Under the pieces are notes generated by a model that searched no databases, was not told where the DNA came from, and saw only the letters and a program-made list of their open reading frames with translations. A program made the translations under genes and the position numbers. A DNA stretch of 64,000 bases from Benincasa hispida (Eukaryota > Streptophyta > Magnoliopsida > Cucurbitales > Cucurbitaceae), in the NCBI RefSeq assembly GCF_009727055.1, contig NC_052350.1, forward strand, positions 31,740,012 through 31,804,011. The letters run 5' to 3'. Shown piece by piece: positions 35,753-50,303 of this stretch (its first letter is position 1; the number at the start of each line of letters is the position of its first letter).

Positions 35753-36590
35753 ATGGCTACCGTTACTCTAAACTTGCTTGCTGCTGATAAATTAACTGGA
35801 AAAAATTACGCTTCATGGAAAAACACGATCAACACAATTTTAATCATTGATGACTTATGTTTTGTCCTTATAGAGAACTGCCCTCCCTTCTTGCTCCCAG
35901 TGCTCCTCGAAATGTTGAGAGGCATACGAGTATTGAACACGGGCAAACAATAAGACCCGAGCATATAACTTGGCAAGTCTTAAAGAAGTATTGGCCAAGA
36001 AGCATGAGCCCATGCTCATGGCCCTTGAGATCGTGGTATCCCTGAGGGGAATGTTCGGACAACCATCCGCACAACTCAAGCATGACGCTTTGAAACACAT
36101 CTTCAATACTTGTATGCAAGAAGGGGCATCTGTTCGAGAACATGTTCTCAACATGATGGTTCACTTCAATGTGGCGGAGATGAATAGGTCTAGCATCGAT
36201 GAAGCCAGTCAGGTTAGCTTTATTTTGGAATTTTTACCTGAAAGTTTCCTCCAGTTTCATAGCAATGTTGTTTTGAACAGGATTAACTACAACCTAATCA
36301 CTCTGCTCAATGAGCTACATACCTTCCAATCCTTGATGAAAAGCAAGGAACATAAGGTTGAGGCAAATGTTGCTTCATCCTCAAAAAAGTTCCACAGAGG
36401 TTCGACCTCTAGGACAAAGTCTATACCTCCCCCCCCGGACCAAAAAGGGGAAAAAGAAGGGTGGGATAGGGAAAGCTAACCCTCTAATTGTTGCTCGAAG
36501 GGGCAGAAGGCCACTCAAGGCCACAAAGAAATTTGTTTCCATTGCAACCAAGGTGGGCATTGGAAGAGGAACTCCTTGGTTAGTAGCAGC
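35753..36590 (+). pseudogene. Ty1/copia gag with zinc knuckle, left arm
   Basis: Reads MATVTLNLLAADKLTGKNYA from ATG 35753, then a frameshift near 35900, then LAKKHEPMLMALEIVVSLRG and QEGASVREHVLNMMVHFNVA. After a further shift, a CCHC-type knuckle CFHCNQGGHWKRNS lies at 36534-36575, with the last Cys replaced by Ser. The gag ends at a junction with the inverted copy near 36590, so protease, integrase and RT are absent. Confidence 0.88.
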
Positions 36591-37238
36591 CTTTCCCTTT
36601 CTATCCTTCTTCTTCTTCCACTTTTTGGCGCCAAAGGAAGAAGGTATAGACTTAGTTCCTGAGGTCGAACCTTTATGGAACTTTTTAGATGATAAAGCAA
36701 CATTTGCTTCACCCTTCTTCTCCTTTCTTTTCAACAAGGATTGGAAAGTTTGCAGCACATTGAGTAGGGTAGTCAGGTTGTAGTCAATCCTGTTCAGAAC
36801 AGCATTGCTATGGAAGTGCAGGAAGCTTTCTAGTAAAGATTCTAGAATGATGCTAACCTGGCTGGCCTCATAGATGCTTGACCCATTCAGCTCCGCCACA
36901 TTGAAGTGGATCATCATGTTGAAAACATGTTCTCGAACAGATGCCCCCTCTTGCATACGAGCATTGAAGATGTACTTGAGAGCGTCGTGCCTGAGCTATG
37001 CGGACGATTGTTCGAACATTCCCTTTAAGGACTCCATGATCTCACGGGCGGTGAGTATGGGCTCATGCTTCTTGGCCAAGACTTCGTTAAAGCTTGCCAA
37101 GATATACGCTCGAGCCTTCTCGTTTGCCCTTGTCCAGCGCTCATACGCTTCTCGAACATTTCGAGAAGCAGTAGGAGGTGGAATGGGAGGACACTTCTCT
37201 ATCAGGACGAAACGTAGATCATCGATGATCAAAATCAT
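36591..37238 (-). pseudogene. Ty1/copia gag, inverted right arm
   Basis: Minus-strand gag reading ILIIDDLRFVLIEKCPPIPP, NEKARAYILASFNEVLAKKH, QEGASVREHVFNMMIHFNVA and SSKKFHKGSTSGTKSIPSS. It pairs tail-to-tail with 35753-36590. It is frame-broken near 37000, and no zinc knuckle remains on this arm. Confidence 0.88.
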
Positions 37239-37852: not shown

Positions 37853-39731
37853 TGATAACTTGTAGAAATACAAGTTATTTATATCGTTTTATTTAAATTA
37901 TGTGGCAAAAAGAAGGAAAAGTTGCGTCGATAGTATGGAAATTGGCTTAGAAATACGAAAATTGTAACGTGTTGTGAGCTCACCCGTTAACCCCATTGCG
38001 ATGGCAAAATGGAATGTCCAAGTCTTTGTTTTGCAGGAAACAGGTCACCACATGCGATAATCGCTCAGGATAAAAAAATGAACAACGCATCCACATTACA
38101 TGCGACAATCGATCAAGAACGAAAAAGAACAACACAATTGCAATGCTTCTAACGATCGATCATGGACTCAAGTGATCAACGCATTTCCACCGCATGCGGA
38201 AATCGACAAAAGATCCAAACAATTACCCGCATGCGGCGATCGATCGAAGATGTAAAGAGCAAAATCTCAAAGACTTATGACAGTGTACAACTTTTTTGTT
38301 GTACGATTCTGACAAATCAATCATGGAACAGAGTGGACGTTTCTACCAAGCCATGGCAGGAATTATCAGATTTTCAAAGTGGGACCACTAATACAGAAGG
38401 AGCTAAAGTCTATAAACAGCTTCCTCAAATTCAATGAAAAGGAGGTTGGTCTGAAGAGACAATTTAGAGAAAATCCAGGAGAAAGATGAGACAAGACCGA
38501 GAGGTAAGTCTCTGAGCAAGCAATTATTTCCATTCCCGAAGAAGAAGCTCCGTGCGAAAGGTCACTTCTACCTGGAAAGCAAGCTTGAGAGGGAAGCTTT
38601 CCACTCAATTTCTACCACACGCCGACAAGTACATCGTCTCCGATCGGGATCTGTGTTAAGACATTGACACTCTTTCCGTATTTGTTCTTATTTTCCATTC
38701 ATCTACCGTGTTCATCTTTAATCGTTCATTCACTATCTATAACAAATGTTGATCTCTAAATTTAAATATCATTATCATATTCATCATCATATCTCTGTTC
38801 TTTTCCATACATTCATCATCCATTTTCTTCATCATGTGTAACTAATCCCCTGGATAAAGGGGAAGGATTAAACGAGTGAGTTAATCCTTGTTAAGGAAAT
38901 CGGCTAAGTTTAGCTAAAGCATGCTCGACGACATCTTCACCTGTGAGAGCAGAAGTGAAGATGTTATTCCACCTCTCGAAAGAAGGTTGGAAGAATATGT
39001 TAACTAAAGCGAGAAGTATTTCCAGAGATGGAAACAACCTTGCGTTCATCACGTTCGCCCCTATTTTGCCATAGACATATGGGAACGCGGCCGATCACTG
39101 AAAGGTGTAAGCCAAGGGAAAGCGGAACCTTAGTTGCGGCCTCAACAAGATTGGCGAACTTGCGATGTCCTTTCCCTCAATCCATTCTCTTTCTGAAACA
39201 TTGCATAAGACTTGCCACCGCATTCATCAGATATTTTTTCACATCTTCACGGCCAGTCCTCACCCTGTATAATTAATTGTTTATTCATTTATTTTATCAC
39301 CGCAATTTACTTATCATTGCACTTTACTTTACCGCACTTTATTTACTATCACATTTTATTCTTTACCACAATTTATGCCTTACCACATTTTACTTTCAAA
39401 ACCAATTCATTATTCTTTTGTTTAACTGGTCGCATATACTACATTAGTATCGCATTTACTCACAAAAACCCCCATGTTCGACCTCATTTCACTCTGAGAA
39501 ACTTGCATTGGAATTATACTTGGTTCCAGCGTAAGAAAACTTATGACACGTGCACTACACGAACGCATACTACGTAAGCATTTAAGCATCCCCGCATACA
39601 TCATTTAGAACGTAGTATTGCATATTTTTATTATTGCAAAGTGCACATACATATACATACATAGACATACGTCGTCAGCAACCTAACAAGTTGTTGGATG
39701 ACAACACGACAACAAAATAAATTTTCGGTCA
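37853..39731 (+). repeat. 5' LTR of the gypsy element (about 1.88 kb)
   Basis: Starts TGATAACTTGTAGAAATACA and ends AAATTTTCGGTCA. Near-identical in layout to 46100-46782 plus 49092-50264. It contains clusters of AT/GATCGATC/GCATGCG motifs (38040-38260). Confidence 0.88.
38411..38419 (+). promoter_or_regulatory. Putative TATA box in the gypsy 5' LTR
   Basis: TATAAACAG here; the 3' LTR has TATAAATAG at 46661-46669. It is in the expected LTR position, upstream of a CT/AG-rich start region. Confidence 0.5.
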
Positions 39732-39740
39732 AAAAGTTTT

Positions 39741-39758
39741 TGGCGCCATTGCCGGGGA
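39741..39758 (+). promoter_or_regulatory. tRNA-Asp primer-binding site (copy 1)
   Basis: TGGCGCCATTGCCGGGGA matches, with one mismatch, the complement of the 3' end of plant tRNA-Asp(GUC), ten bases after the LTR. This is typical of Tat/Athila-type gypsy elements. Confidence 0.88.
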
Positions 39759-39813
39759 CGAAAACTTGAGTCATAGTGCATCATTCATTCATTTTTAATT
39801 CTTAACAAGTTTT

Positions 39814-39928: not shown

Positions 39929-40216
39929 AGTACCGAGACTGAACCAGAATTCGAAGCCGACCCAGAGATCGAGCGTATTTTTGCGCACGAGCACACTAGA
40001 ACTGTATAAGGCGAAGAAAGAACATGGCTAATAACAACGACAGGCCCAAGAGGAATCAAAGGGTAAATCGGCCGACTTTTCATCAAGGTCTGAATCAGAG
40101 TCACCTCCAAAGTAGGCAATCGTACAACCAGCCTTCCTCATCCAATATCTCAATGAATACATCGTCCTTGGAAGCTCTGCTTAAGCAGTATATAACGAAA
40201 AATGATGCAGTTATGC
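39929..40216 (+). pseudogene. Gypsy gag N-terminal remnant
   Basis: Reads MSTETEPEFEADPEIERIFA, a stop, then MANNNDRPKRNQRVNRP and SSLEALLKQYITKNDAVM. The last segment resembles the Athila-type gag region before its central part. The frame then runs into an adapter sequence at 40217, so nothing beyond is genuine in this frame. Confidence 0.7.
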
Positions 40217-40254
40217 CTGTCTCTTATACACATCTAGATGTGTATAAGAGACAG
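40217..40254. other. Nextera mate-pair junction adapter (sequencing artefact)
   Basis: A perfect 38-bp palindrome: the Tn5 mosaic end CTGTCTCTTATACACATCT followed by its reverse complement. This is the Illumina Nextera mate-pair circularisation junction, not plant DNA. Translated through, it gives the well-known contaminant peptide SYTHLDVYKRQ. Confidence 0.98.
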
Positions 40255-40580
40255 GGGGTAAGCGTTGCGATGTTGGTGATACCATAAAAAAAACATCCGG
40301 TATGCATTGCGATGACGGGTGTATCTAGCGTTAATAGATACACTTTGCGCCCGTCTTCCAAAAATGCATTGCATTGATGGATGAGTTACCCGCGTATGTA
40401 CACTACGCCCTGTCTCTTATACACATCTAGATGTGTATAAGAGACAGGGGATAAGCGTTGCGATGTTGGTGATACCATAAAAAAAACATCCGGTATGCAT
40501 TGCGATGACGGGTGTATCTAGCGTTAATAGATACACTTTGCGCCCGTCTTCCAAAAATGCATTGCATTGATGGATGAGTG
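40255..40580. repeat. Duplicated segment flanking adapters
   Basis: 40255-40398 (GGGTAAGCGTTGCGATGTTG to GGATGAGT) recurs at 40448-40580 almost base for base, with an adapter before each copy. It is most simply an assembly artefact of adapter-containing mate-pair reads. Confidence 0.9.
40410..40447. other. Nextera mate-pair junction adapter, second copy
   Basis: An identical 38-bp palindrome of the Tn5 mosaic end and its inverse. It is followed by the second copy of the same genomic segment. Confidence 0.98.
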
Positions 40581-40790
40581 TGCTCATATGTACACTGTGC
40601 CTCTCCTCCACAAATACGCACTATGTCGATGGTTGTATTGCGCTGGTAGAAATACCGTACGCCCGTCCTCCAGAAATGCATTGCGTTGATGGTTGTGTTG
40701 TGCCAATACATACGTTGTGCCCATCCTCCGCAAATATGCATTTGTGGTAACGGATGCATTGCGTTAAATACTTAAAATTGCGCCCGTCCA
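40530..40790. repeat. Degenerate tandem repeat of about 65-70 bp
   Basis: Units contain a GCGCCCGTCCTCC block, then AxAAATGCATTGCGTTGATGG, then TTGTxTTG. About four units, each quite diverged. It is part of the gypsy internal region. Confidence 0.75.
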
Positions 40791-43345: not shown

Positions 43346-43887
43346 TCATTCGCCCACTAAGCCTACAAAATGAGCCCCTTTCTCCTCTTCCCGAACAATT
43401 CACAAACCTCCTTCTTGCCTCTGACTCTAACCCCGCATCTCCAGCAGCATCCCCCCGCCATCCATCTCCACCTCACTTTTTACCCCCATCGCCGTATGTT
43501 GATGACCCACACGGTTTAGGAGCAGACCCTTCCGCTCAACCTCAAATCGATGTTGGTGAAACATCAACGGTGCATTCCACCATCGCATCCCTTGCTGCTG
43601 CCTTACCCGATATGCGGGTCTTCTTATCTCAACAACTTACCTTCTTCCGCCATGCATTAACAGAGTTGCAAGAGAGTAATGCAAAGTTGCAAGAGAGCAA
43701 TGCAGAGTTGCGAGATAGCAACGCAATGTTGCAACAAGGGATGGTCAATATTCAACGCAACATCTTCACCATTTGCCTGAATCAAAGACAGATGGCCGAG
43801 CGCAACCATGAGTACTTCAATTTCTTAACAACATATCTACATGGTCCCATGGTGCCTCCACATCTATTGCAACCTCTGCAATTTTGA
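43327..43887 (+). pseudogene. Element ORF C-terminal part (coiled-coil-like)
   Basis: Pro-rich start (PASPAASPRHPSPP) then a heptad-like, Leu/Asn/Gln-rich stretch with a repeated LQESNA-type motif and HEYFNFLTTYLHGPMVPPHL. It continues the preceding domain in another frame. A diverged second copy lies at 44528-44932. Confidence 0.7.
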
Positions 43888-44505
43888 GAAGCGCCTCAAA
43901 GAGTTCCTCCGCAACACTCTCCTCATCAAGAGCCCGCGCCGCAACTCTAAATTTGGGGGTGTGCCACATTCTCCACAATTGTGCATTTTTTTTCTTTGCG
44001 GCCATTCAATTTTTTATAGAAAGCTATACCTTGTATTCTTTTGTTCATACTTACAATTTTGTGTTGCGATATTTATAATTCTTTGTGTACTTAGATAAAT
44101 TTTATACAACTGAGTAATCATTCTTTCCTTATGCATTGGCCTCTTTACTTTTATCATCATTTGTCAATTATTGAATTCATGTATTTTCTTTTGCATTGTT
44201 TATTTGCGCTGCCATGATGAGTAGTGTGCATAACCTTAGCAAAATTTCTTTACACATTGCATTTTCTGCCTAACACTTGGACAATTCTTTGCAATAGTTA
44301 TACTTTACCTTCTCTATTACAAGACTCTGCTCAAAGCTTCTTTTCAAAATTTTGACTAAGTGTTTTGTCTTTTCTGTCCAAAACAACGCAATGAGAACCT
44401 TGCGCATCTCTAAATTTGGGGGTAAGGAAGGTCTGAGCAGATGCGATCAAGTGGATGCGGTAATATTAGGCAAATGCGTTCATCACCATAAAAAAAAAAA
44501 AAAAA
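43545..44505 (+). repeat. First copy of a block duplicated across an assembly gap
   Basis: Corresponds to 44525-45464. Both copies encode the HEYFNFLTTYLHGPMVP segment, continue through the same 3' non-coding text (GTTTGTCxTTTTxTGTCCAAAACAA, then GGTCTGAGCAGATGCGATCAA), and end in a poly-A run. Confidence 0.85.
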
Positions 44506-44524
44506 NNNNNNNNNNNNNNNNNNN
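44506..44524. other. Assembly gap (19 N)
   Basis: Nineteen unknown bases directly after a 15-A run, between two near-copies of the same block. The true length is unknown. Confidence 1.
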
Positions 44525-45464
44525 GATTTGGGTGAAGGCACTTCTACCCAACCCCAAAGCATTGATGGTGAAACATCGCAGGCACAGCCTACCATTGCCA
44601 CATTAGCTGCTGAACTTGCTGATATGCGTTCTCTTCTTTCTCATCAACATGACTTTTTCTGCCAACGAATAATGAAGGTACACGAGCGACAAAAAGAGTT
44701 ACAATGTAGTGTTGCTATGACAAGGCAGGTGCTGATCAACATTCAATGCAATATTTACATGATCCACCTGAACCAAAGGCAATTAGCAGAGCACAACCAT
44801 GAGTACTTCAACTTTTTGACAACATATCTACATGGTCCCATGGTGCCTCTGCATTTACAGCAACATCTGCATTTCAAAGAAGCTCCTCGAGTACCTCATC
44901 AAAATCCTTCTCCTGAACCTCCTCCTCAATAAATCTACAAATTCTTTTGCGGTCATTCTTTCATTTTATTCAATTCATTATTTCTATGTATAGAAGCTAT
45001 TTCTTGATTCTTTGTACATGCTGAAATTTTGTATTGCATTATTTGTAATTCTTTGTATACTTGGTTAATTTTAATATAACTAAGTAATAATTCTTTCCGT
45101 ATACGTTAGCCTCTTATTTATCATCCTTTGTCAATTATTGTGATTTTCTTTATCTTATATTTTGCGATATTCATTGTGCTGCCATGATGAGTTATGTGCA
45201 TACCCTTTGCAACATTTCCCACACTTTGTATTTTCTGACTAACACTTAGATAATTCTTAGTAATAGCACTATTTTACCTTTTATCCTTCAAGACTCTACT
45301 CAAACCTTCTTTTTAAAATTTTGACTAAGTGTTTGTCTATTTTGTCCAAAACAAGGACCTTGCATATCTCTAAATTTGGGTCTGGAGAAGGTCTGAGCAG
45401 ATGCGATCAAGCGGATGCGGTTATCATTAGAAAATGCGTTCATTGCCAAAAAAAAAAAAAAAAA
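44525..45464 (+). repeat. Second copy of the duplicated block
   Basis: Diverged from 43545-44505, so it is a genuine second copy rather than a pure assembly duplicate. It includes an ORF (44528-44932) with MVPLHLQQHLHF and PSPEPPPQ, then a poly-A run at about 45447. Confidence 0.85.
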
Positions 45465-46099: not shown

Positions 46100-46660
46100 T
46101 GATAACTTGTAGATATACAAGTTATTTATACCGTTTTATTTAGATTATGCGGCAAAAAGAAGGAAAAGTTGCGTCGATAGTATAGAAATTGGCTTAGAAA
46201 TATGAAAATTGTAAAATGTCGTGAGCACACCCGCTAACTCCATTGCGATGGTAAAATGGAATGTCCAAGTCTTTTTTTTGCAGGAAACAGGTCACCGCGT
46301 GCGATAATCGCTCGAGGACAAAAAAATGAACAACACATCCACATTGCATGCGACAATCGATCAAGAACGAAAAAGAACAACGTAATTGTAACGCATGCGA
46401 TGATCGATCATGGACTCAAGCGATCAATGCATTTCCACCACATGCGGCAATCAATAAAAGATCAAAACAATTACACGCATGCGACAATCGATCGAAGATG
46501 TAAAGAGCAACGCAATCGCAAGGACTTCTGATAGGTATAGCTTTTCTATTGTACGATTCTGAAAAATCAATCGTGGAGCAGAACGGACGTTTCCACCAAG
46601 CTATGGTAAGAATTATCAGATCTTCAAAGTGGGGCCACTAATATAGAAGGAGACAAAGTC

Positions 46661-46669
46661 TATAAATAG
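46661..46669 (+). promoter_or_regulatory. Putative TATA box in the gypsy 3' LTR
   Basis: TATAAATAG; the counterpart in the 5' LTR is TATAAACAG. Confidence 0.5.
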
Positions 46670-46896
46670 CTTCCTCAAATTCAATGAAAAGGAGGCTGGT
46701 CTGAGGAGAAAATTTAGAGAAAATCTAGGAGAAAGACGAGACAAGACCGAGACGTAAGTCTCTGAGCAAACAATTATTGTGAAACCCAGATTTCCATTTT
46801 TCCTACTTAAGTAGGTGGTTAAGGAAATTAGTTAAGTAAAAGTTAAATCCTATGTTGAAGTGAAGGAAATTTCTAAGTGTTGAATAGATTTTCCTT

Positions 46897-47160
46897 GAGT
46901 AGCTTTGAGTTAAGCTTAAATCCCTGAAAATTGACTAAGTGTTGGACTAGGCATTGCTATGTGAGTAGCTTTGAGTTAAGCTTAAATCCCTGAAAATTGA
47001 CTAAGTGTTGGACTAGGCATTGCTATGTGAGTAGCTTTGAGTTAAGCTTAAAATCCATGAAAATTGACTAAGTGTTGGACTAGGCATTGCTATGTGAGTA
47101 GCTTTGAGTTAAGCTTAAATCCCTAAAAATTGATTAAGTGTTGGACTAGACATTGCTATG
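46897..47160. repeat. 66-bp tandem repeat, four copies
   Basis: The unit contains GAGTAGCTTTGAGTTAAGCT, then TGACTAAGTGTTGGACTAGG. Units start at 46897, 46963, 47029 and 47096; the first three are nearly identical. Confidence 0.95.
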
Positions 47161-47584
47161 CATTGGCCACAAGATCTTGGAAAGAGTACTTGGGCAAAGG
47201 GAAATTTTGGAAATTTGGCTAAGTATAGAAGTTGTGTTGATGTGTTGGAAGGTACCAATGCGTTGGAAGAAGTTGTGTTGATTGCCTACTATGCATTGAT
47301 AGCTTAATATGCGTTGAACATCCAAGAGTTTGTGGACGCATATGAAGGATGAACTCATGGAGGATGTCATCCGGACATGTGGCTTGTTAGGAAGAATTCT
47401 TAAGCCTTAAGTAAAAGAGGTGGCATCATAAGAAGACATACAAAGTTAAGGGCCATGCGTTGGTGAAAGGAGAAGAAGACACATTGGGTTGTGCTGATGC
47501 AAGATTGCGTTGATGGTGTAAGGAAGAGACACTTGGTCATGCGGTCAAGTAGGACGTGTCGGCCATGAAGCAATCTTGGATGTC

Positions 47585-47593
47585 TATAAATAG
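47585..47593 (+). promoter_or_regulatory. Putative TATA box in the solo LTR
   Basis: TATAAATAG in the middle of the LTR, the usual position for an LTR promoter. Confidence 0.45.
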
Positions 47594-50273
47594 GACAAAA
47601 GACTTCATTCTTCAGATCACAACTCAAAATAAATTTAAGAAGAGTGGGGAAGTTGAGGAAACCTTGCGTTGAGAGCAAAATCCATGCGTTGGACATAGAA
47701 GTTCAAAGAGGGCGCATTGGACAGTGAAGTCTGGAAAGCAGCATCAAATTAGAACGAGAAGTTCTCCCAGAATACTCGTGAGTTTGACGTAATTCAAAAG
47801 CCATCTGAAAGCTAAAAGAGTCTAGTTTTCATGGTGGGGCTGCCGGAGAAGAATCTTTAGGGAATCAGGCTGGAGAATGAGGAAAAGACAGAAGGGTCGA
47901 GCTGTCGGGTAAGCTGGGCCAGTCTTAATGTTTTGATGATTTCGGAAAAATCACAAGAATTTATGATCTAAGATTTTATGATAAGCTTCCTGAGACATTT
48001 TAGAACATGTTTGCAGAAGGAAGTATCTTAAAATAAGGTCTAGAACTATGAGTAATCTAAGCTGATATTTGAATCTGGAATTTAGGATTCAAAAGGGAAA
48101 CCAAGGAAACCTAAGGAACTTTGGAAAGGAAAGTTCCTAACCAACCAAGGTAAGTGGTTATTGTGTGTTGTATTGTTGATATGAATTCTATATATAGGTA
48201 AATATATATAGGGGATAATGTTAAATTAGCATGATCAGGGATATGTGTTTATCTGATTACTATGCTTGTTAAGATATTGCTTGTATGTTTGTGTTAGAAA
48301 CTGGAATTGTACCCGGGATATATAGTTAGCATGCTTGAAAAGGTACTTGGCAGAAAAATATAGTCGGCTTCAGTTGGCGGGAAATTATAGTTGGTGACGA
48401 CTGGCAGGAAATATAGTCAAGTTACCTAAGCATAGCTAGCGGGAATAGTTGATGTGCACATTGGCGGGATAATAGGGTATAGGGAAAGTTTCCACAGGAA
48501 TTGTTGTTGTCTTAGTATACGTGTGAAAGTACTGGGGATGTTTTGTTATGTGATAACCAGTAGTCAAGTTGGGGTTGATTGTTTTAACCAGCGGTCGAGC
48601 TAGGGATTGTCCAACGGTTTGGCTAGAAAATAATAATGAACTTGTGGTAATGTTCTTGTTGACTATGAATTGCTTTCCCAAAAGTATATTTCTGTTGACA
48701 AAGTTATTTGTTTATCTAAAGGCACCACTCATTGAGCTTTATTGCTCATGTTTTCTATGTTTTATGTTTTACCCCCCTCCCCACAGGTAACGAAAGGTGA
48801 GGTGTTCCAGGGTGCTACTAAAGTCAAGGTTTGTCGTGCCACAGTTACACTCCCGAAGGGTTTTACGATTGTTGTTGTAAACTTTGTAATTAAGTCTTGG
48901 AGTTGTATAAACGTTACATTGTTGTAATAAAATGGGCCTACTTAATCAGTTAGTTATTGAATTTGTACATTGGTATCAGAGTTATTTCCTCAAAAAGTTA
49001 TTAGGCAGTAAGTGTCAACGAAAGGGTTGATAACTGCTGCCAGTCATGCCCTTTCCCAAACTAAGAGGATGATCTGGGGCGGGGTGTGACAATTATTTCC
49101 ATTCCCGAAGAAGAAGCTCTGTGCGAAAGGTCACTTCTACCTGGAAAGCAAGCCTGAGAGGGAAGCTTTCCACTCCATTTCTACCACACGCCGACAAGCA
49201 CATCGTCTCCGATCGGGATCTGTGTCAAGACATTGACACTCTTTCTGTATTTGTTCTTATTTACTATTCATCTACTGTGTTCATGTTTAATCGTTCATTC
49301 ACTATCTGTAACAAACGATGATCTCTAGATTTAAATATCATTATCGTATACATCATCATCTTTCTGTTCTTTTCCATACATTCATCATCCATTTTCTTCA
49401 TCATGTGTAACTAATCCCCTGGGTAAAGGGGAAGGATTAAGCAAGTGAGTTAATCCTTGTTAAGGAAATCGGCTGAGTTTAGCTAAAGCATGCTCGACGA
49501 CATCTTCGCCTGTGAGAGCAGAAGTGAAGATGTTATTCCACCTCTCGAAAGAAGGTTGGAAGAATGCGTTAATTAAAGAAAGAAGTATTTCTAGAGACGG
49601 AAACAACCTTGTGTTCATCACGTTTGTCCCTGTTTCGCCATAAGCAAAGGGAAAGCGGAACCTTAGTTGCAGCCTCAACAAGATTGATGAACTTGCGATG
49701 TCCTTTCCCTCAACCCATTCTCTTTCTGACACATTTCACAAGACTTGCCACCGTATTCATCAGACATTTTTGCACATCTTCACAGCCAGTCCTCACCCTG
49801 TATAATTAATTTTTTATTCATTTATTTTATCACCACAATTTACTTATCATTGCACTTTACTTTACCGCACTTTATTTACCATCGCATTTTATCCTTTACT
49901 GCAATTTATGCTTTATCGCATTTTACTTTCAAAACCAATTCATTATTCTTTTGTTTAACCAGTCGCATATACCACATTAGTATCGCATTTACTCACAACA
50001 ATCCCCGTGTTGGACCTCAAATCACTCTGAAAAACTTGCGTTGGAATTATACTTGGTTCCAGTGTAAGAAAACTTGTGATACGTGCACTACACAAACGCA
50101 TACTACGTAAGCATTTAAGCATCACCGCATACATCATTTAGAACGTAGTATCGCATATTTTTATTATCACAAAGCACACATACATATACATACATAGACA
50201 TATGTCGTCAGCAACCTAACAAGTTGTTTGACGACAACACGACAACGAAATAAATTTTTGGTCACCAAGTTTT

Positions 50274-50291
50274 TGGCGCCGTTGTCGGGGA
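50274..50291 (+). promoter_or_regulatory. tRNA-Asp primer-binding site after the 3' LTR
   Basis: TGGCGCCGTTGTCGGGGA, one mismatch from the perfect site. Its presence after the right-hand LTR shows that this LTR once led into another internal region. Confidence 0.85.
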
Positions 50292-50303
50292 CGAAAACTT
50301 GAG

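What the first reader, a model, noticed from the sequence alone, without database searches (positions are those of the whole stretch)
40217..40447. Two perfect Nextera mate-pair junction adapters inside the assembly
The 19-nt Tn5 mosaic end followed by its inverse is the exact mate-pair junction sequence; two identical 38-bp copies cannot be natural plant sequence by chance. They explain the odd peptide SYTHLDVYKRQ in one reading frame. Sequence order between about 40216 and 40580 cannot be trusted, and the gag truncation at 40216 may be artificial.
Basis: partly seen in the sequence, partly recalled or inferred. Interest (0 to 1): 0.8.

Follow-up and report, generated by a model that had tools for sequence, protein, structure and literature searches.

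The report
Leftover sequencing adapters in genome assembly
Two short synthetic adapters from a DNA-library method were built by mistake into this plant-like genome assembly, which holds thousands more of them, so the sequence next to them should not be read as biology.

Summary
Two identical 38-bp palindromes (Tn5 19-bp mosaic end plus its reverse complement) lie at 40217-40254 and 40410-40447; 0 are expected in shuffles. A published protocol prints this 38-mer as its biotin-labelled circularisation adapter (PMC7357533, passage). The window's own assembly (912.9 Mb) holds 9,991 exact copies against 0 for the reversed control. The 38-mer also occurs in 120 stretches (capped list) from 19 named bacterial assemblies, and 77 of 77 protein hits to the chimeric frame carry its translation, whole or in part. 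It is a mate-pair junction adapter left in reads and assembled.

The second junction sits between two near-copies of a ~155-bp segment, as if a short fragment closed on itself and was unrolled. That signature, in full, marks 14 of 49 other junctions tested in this assembly, against 1 of 2,000 control positions; the window's second junction meets it on one side only, loosely on the other.

So the 193-bp repeat at 40216-40579 is at least partly false, and order across 40216-40602 is unreliable. Whether the gag-like frame truly ends at 40216 is untested. This is an artefact, ordinary in kind, notable for its scale here.

The parts
40217..40254 (.). Junction 1 (J1): mosaic end plus its reverse complement, 38-bp perfect palindrome
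   Evidence: exact 38-mer printed as an adapter in PMC7357533
40410..40447 (.). Junction 2 (J2): identical 38-bp palindrome
40255..40409 (+). Segment X..Y between the junctions, copy 1 (155 bp)
   Evidence: nearly the same sequence follows J2
40448..40602 (+). Copy 2 of the segment, 146 of 154 aligned positions identical, diverging in the last ~25 nt
40603..40790 (+). Degenerate repeat array that continues from copy 2 without adapter (probably genuine plant sequence; end approximate)
40024..40216 (+). Gag-like frame (64 residues) that runs into J1; as an ORF it reads on through the adapter to a stop at 40287

Best explanation
Both 38-bp palindromes are junction adapters of a Tn5-type (most likely Nextera) mate-pair library, left untrimmed in reads and built into the assembly. 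Shown: the adapter's identity to a published circularisation adapter, its assembly-wide presence, and the local duplication. Inferred: J2 comes from a fragment of about 155 bp closed on itself, so that reads ran X..Y-adapter-X, and the assembler or gap filler placed them in a repeat array and made the 193-bp repeat (my odds for this step about 0.7). J1 was entered from the gag-like side and left through the same X end, either because the assembly graph collapses on the 38-mer common to all junctions or because another mate-pair molecule joined the two places. The sequences left and right of J1 therefore need not be neighbours in the plant.
For: Exact 38-mer as biotin ring adapter in PMC7357533. 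9,991 exact copies in the own assembly, reversed control 0. 77 of 77 protein hits carry the adapter peptide, 76 in full, with differing Pfam domains where any is given. Full self-circle signature at 14 of 49 other own-assembly junctions against 1 of 2,000 control positions and at 21 of 135 junctions elsewhere against 0 of 2,000. Four adapters exactly 167 bp apart at C1:2861251-2861789, a 129-bp unit plus 38. No 9-bp target duplication at J1 or J2.
Against: 29 of 49 other own-assembly junctions, and J1, show no local duplication, so self-circles explain only part. J2 meets the signature on the X side (1 of 20 mismatches) but on the Y side only one base off and with 5 of 20 mismatches. Sequencing libraries and reads of this assembly were not available. 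0 of 20,395 E. coli records and 0 of 50,697 phage records hold the 38-mer, so contamination is uneven between collections. The protocol that prints the 38-mer sheared DNA by ultrasound rather than by Tn5, so the letters alone do not name the kit.
Confidence: 0.96

Rival explanations
1. A natural Tn5/IS50-like or MITE-like palindromic element has multiplied in this plant genome.
For: 9,991 copies in one genome is a number that a transposable element could reach; the 38-mer is a perfect inverted repeat.
Against: No cargo or transposase between the ends; no 9-bp target duplication at J1 or J2 or at the 49 other own-assembly junctions, and only 1 of 154 elsewhere; the same 38 letters occur in unrelated bacteria; a protocol lists them as a synthetic adapter. 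That the mosaic end is an engineered hybrid of the natural IS50 ends is recalled.
Confidence: 0.005
2. Adapter from another circularisation protocol that uses the same oligonucleotide on sheared DNA, not the Nextera mate-pair kit. Still an artefact.
For: PMC7357533 used this 38-mer on DNA sheared by Covaris.
Against: Nothing direct; library records of this assembly were not available. That the Nextera kit is the common source is recalled.
Confidence: 0.1
3. The adapters are artefacts, but the 193-bp duplication itself is real: two true units of the repeat array that happen to carry adapters at the same place.
For: The array has further diverged units downstream, and the last ~25 nt of the two copies differ, so the copies may come from two true units.
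Against: Both copies begin at the same base right after an adapter and agree over 128 bp without a difference, and adapter-bounded duplications recur at other junctions of this assembly.
Confidence: 0.25

Closest known systems
Mate-pair (Nextera/Tn5) circularisation junction adapter
   Same: All 38 letters agree with the ring adapter printed in PMC7357533; orientation genome-CTGTCTCTTATACACATCT|AGATGTGTATAAGAGACAG-genome is that expected for two tagged ends ligated to each other (recalled chemistry; steps described in passages of PMC6298255).
   Different: It stands in an assembly instead of having been trimmed from reads.
Adapter-contaminated public assemblies, e.g. Enterococcus sp. 10A9_DIV0425 and Scytonema tolypothrichoides VB-61278
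   Same: Same 38-mer at several places, in part with the same local duplications.
   Different: Scale: 9,991 copies in one 912.9-Mb assembly, whose two contigs seen are 96.4 and 61.3 Mb long.

Membership tests
Mate-pair junction adapter artefact | Exact 38-bp mosaic-end/inverse palindrome with no extra base | tested here: met
Mate-pair junction adapter artefact | Present at many unrelated places of the same assembly | tested here: met
   9,991 copies, reversed control 0
Mate-pair junction adapter artefact | Present, letter for letter, in unrelated organisms | tested here: met
   none in phages or E. coli records
Mate-pair junction adapter artefact | Absent from the organism's DNA (long reads or PCR lack it) | not testable with these tools
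   no reads of this assembly held
Self-circularised short fragment (for J2) | Flanks repeat as X..Y-adapter-X..Y | tested here: inconclusive
   X side met (1 of 20 mismatches at 155 bp), Y side 5 of 20 and one base off; met in full at 14 of 49 other own-assembly junctions
Tn5/IS50-like transposon insertion | 9-bp target duplication | tested here: not met
   for J1 and J2
Tn5/IS50-like transposon insertion | Transposase or cargo between the ends | tested here: not met
   0 nt between the arms of each palindrome; 155 bp of array sequence between J1 and J2

The most novel reading that the evidence does not exclude
A large plant-like assembly carries about ten thousand undetected mate-pair junctions, a good part of them with false local duplications, enough to make spurious minisatellites, chimeric gene models and misjoins throughout; the window shows one such place.
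Probability: 0.9. Interest if true: 0.25.

Novelty: not a real feature. Interest (0 to 1): 0.12.

Why it matters
It is a quality warning, not biology. Repeats, reading frames and element borders near any of the 9,991 copies (about one per 91 kb) should be masked or checked again. The X..Y-adapter-X..Y anatomy is a simple test for false tandem duplications in short-read assemblies, and SYTHLDVYKRQ is a handy tag for chimeric predicted proteins.

Tried and rejected
Natural transposon or MITE: rejected (no target duplication, no cargo, same letters in unrelated bacteria). Fold-back duplication at junctions: 0 of 154 junctions in other public records had flanks complementary at 18 or more of 20 bases. 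In that of 154 had an N within 500 bases, but only 1 of 51 in the own assembly did, so nearness to gaps is not general. Gag relatives: no Pfam family for the piece, no candidate in the protein search. Of the 77 hits to the 87-aa chimeric frame, every one carries the adapter peptide whole or in part; some align over more of the query (up to 89% at 31% identity), and I did not test whether that is more than chance. Other gag-leader copies among own-genome loci in hand: one match in L131 (81% over 201 bp), which does not reach the truncation point, and a 38-bp match in L169. Literature: SYTHLDVYKRQ in 0 papers of the held library; 0 papers for the term sets. Searches gave listings; from them only PMC5053417, PMC6298255 and PMC7718744 were opened, for passages. 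The library lacks most subscription journals, so this does not show that the artefact is undescribed.

Limits of the counts; 156 junctions (154 from other records, 2 of the window) became 137 (135 and 2) after dropping repeated flanks and junctions without 20 clean bases on each side; 3 of its 21 full signatures have k=20, where the two tests coincide. One-sided matches were 13 right (one of them J2) and 10 left, against 3 and 4 of 2,000 control positions; 49 own-assembly junctions plus 2 of the window; these 49 are all the places that one search listed, the first on contig C1, not a random sample of 9,991, and several are neighbours (L145 holds four). L144 was left out because it overlaps L145. 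One-sided matches there: 3 right (one of them J2) and 4 left, against 10 and 9 of 2,000; 28 pairs from other records and the window's own pair; one search did not include the own-genome loci.

Full report
Observation. The window holds exactly two 38-bp palindromes, 40217-40254 and 40410-40447, each the 19-mer CTGTCTCTTATACACATCT followed by its reverse complement. No other place matches the 19-mer with up to 3 mismatches, and 100 dinucleotide shuffles gave none. SYTHLDVYKRQ is one reading frame of the palindrome, on both strands.

Identity. A published protocol prints precisely this 38-mer as the biotin-labelled ring adapter with which sheared fragments were circularised (PMC7357533, passages seen). 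Passages of PMC6298255 describe Nextera mate-pair chemistry: tagmentation with biotinylated junction adapters, gap fill, circularisation, shearing, capture, then trimming with NxTrim. A passage of PMC7718744 says that such trimming and sorting reduces mis-assemblies. Passages of PMC5053417 describe the same kit steps for Arabidopsis. That the kit's junction has these very letters, and that the mosaic end is an engineered hybrid of natural IS50 ends, is recalled and comes from no call.

Scale. The window is G000:C2:31740012-31804011 of an assembly of 912,946,352 bases in 1,791 contigs. That assembly holds 9,991 exact copies of the 38-mer (the same number on either strand, because it is a palindrome); the pattern read backwards gives 0. 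This is about one per 91 kb. The 10 kb before the window hold one more 19-mer on the + strand; the 10 kb after it read all N.

Elsewhere. It is in 7 stretches of viral contigs, in 5 of 72,556 plasmid records, in 0 of 50,697 phage records and in 0 of 20,395 E. coli records. A protein search with the 87-aa chimeric frame gave 77 proteins at E up to 10. All 77 carry the adapter peptide, 76 of them in full; of the 5 sequences printed, 4 carry it twice. Where Pfam domains are given they differ from protein to protein, and 76 of the 77 come from ENA only. Such a distribution fits a reagent, not a gene family.

Anatomy. J1 and J2 are 193 bp apart and share the right-hand flank. The 155 bp after J1 (40255-40409) recur after J2 (40448-40602) with 146 of 154 aligned positions identical; they differ at base 4 and in the last ~25 nt. 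After copy 2 a degenerate array runs on to about 40790. A short fragment X..Y closed on itself would give reads X..Y-adapter-X..Y. I tested for this pattern with 20-nt flanks and up to 2 mismatches on each side. It is met in full at 14 of 49 other junctions of this assembly, against 1 of 2,000 control positions, and at 21 of 135 junctions in other records, against 0 of 2,000. At C1:2861251-2861789 four adapters follow one another at exactly 167 bp, which is a 129-bp unit plus the adapter. J2 meets the X side (1 of 20 mismatches at 155 bp) but the Y side only one base off and with 5 of 20 mismatches, as if circle and neighbourhood came from different copies of the array. J1 shows no such pattern, nor do 29 of the 49 other own-assembly junctions. 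Of 29 junction pairs within 1 kb (28 from other records, 1 in the window), 2 share the right flank (the window's among them) and 3 the left, so the window's arrangement has a precedent.

What follows and what does not. The two palindromes are artefacts, and the 193-bp repeat reported by Tandem Repeats Finder is at least partly false. J1 joins a gag-like frame, 64 residues from 40024 with no Pfam family and no homologue found, to array sequence. Apart from 12-13 nt matches, the array segment has no copy upstream in the window. J1 could be a chimeric circle, a long-range mate pair or a graph collapse on the shared 38-mer; these were not told apart. The frame's end at 40216 coincides with the adapter and may be artificial, but no other copy covering that point was seen, and the search of the own genome did not complete.

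Surroundings. Long repeats 37853-38528/46100-46778 (89%) and 38521-39770/49090-50303 (90%) look like the two LTRs of one retrotransposon, the second broken by an insert. A frame inside it matches PF20167, putative plant transposon protein, below the curated cut-off (31 against 45 bits).

Verdict. What is added here is its assembly-wide scale and a self-circle anatomy that explains part of the local duplications.

Noticed in passing
37853-39770 and 46100-50303: Two ~90% identical long repeats that look like the LTRs of one ~12-kb retrotransposon; the downstream copy is split by an insert of about 2.3 kb at 46778-49090.
   Followed up: partly
44506-44524: A run of 19 N, the only one in the window, lies just between two 72% identical stretches 43515-44504 and 44527-45464; possibly a collapsed or mis-scaffolded repeat.
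   Followed up: no
36381-36956: Overlapping, oppositely directed frames (35970-36479 + and 36381-36956 -), the first with a match to copia-type gag just under the Pfam cut-off; the region belongs to related repeats in inverted order.
   Followed up: no
L145 (G000:C1:2860000-2863000): Four adapters at exactly 167-bp spacing, a tandem array that looks wholly artificial.
   Followed up: yes
L170 (G000:C2:31804012-31814011): The 10 kb directly after the window read entirely N, either a gap or a withheld stretch.
   Followed up: no
own-genome loci L130-L169 (without L144) and window: 107 mosaic-end 19-mers against 52 complete 38-mers, so 3 single mosaic ends stand outside pairs: partly trimmed adapters are rarer than whole junctions in this sample.
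   Followed up: no
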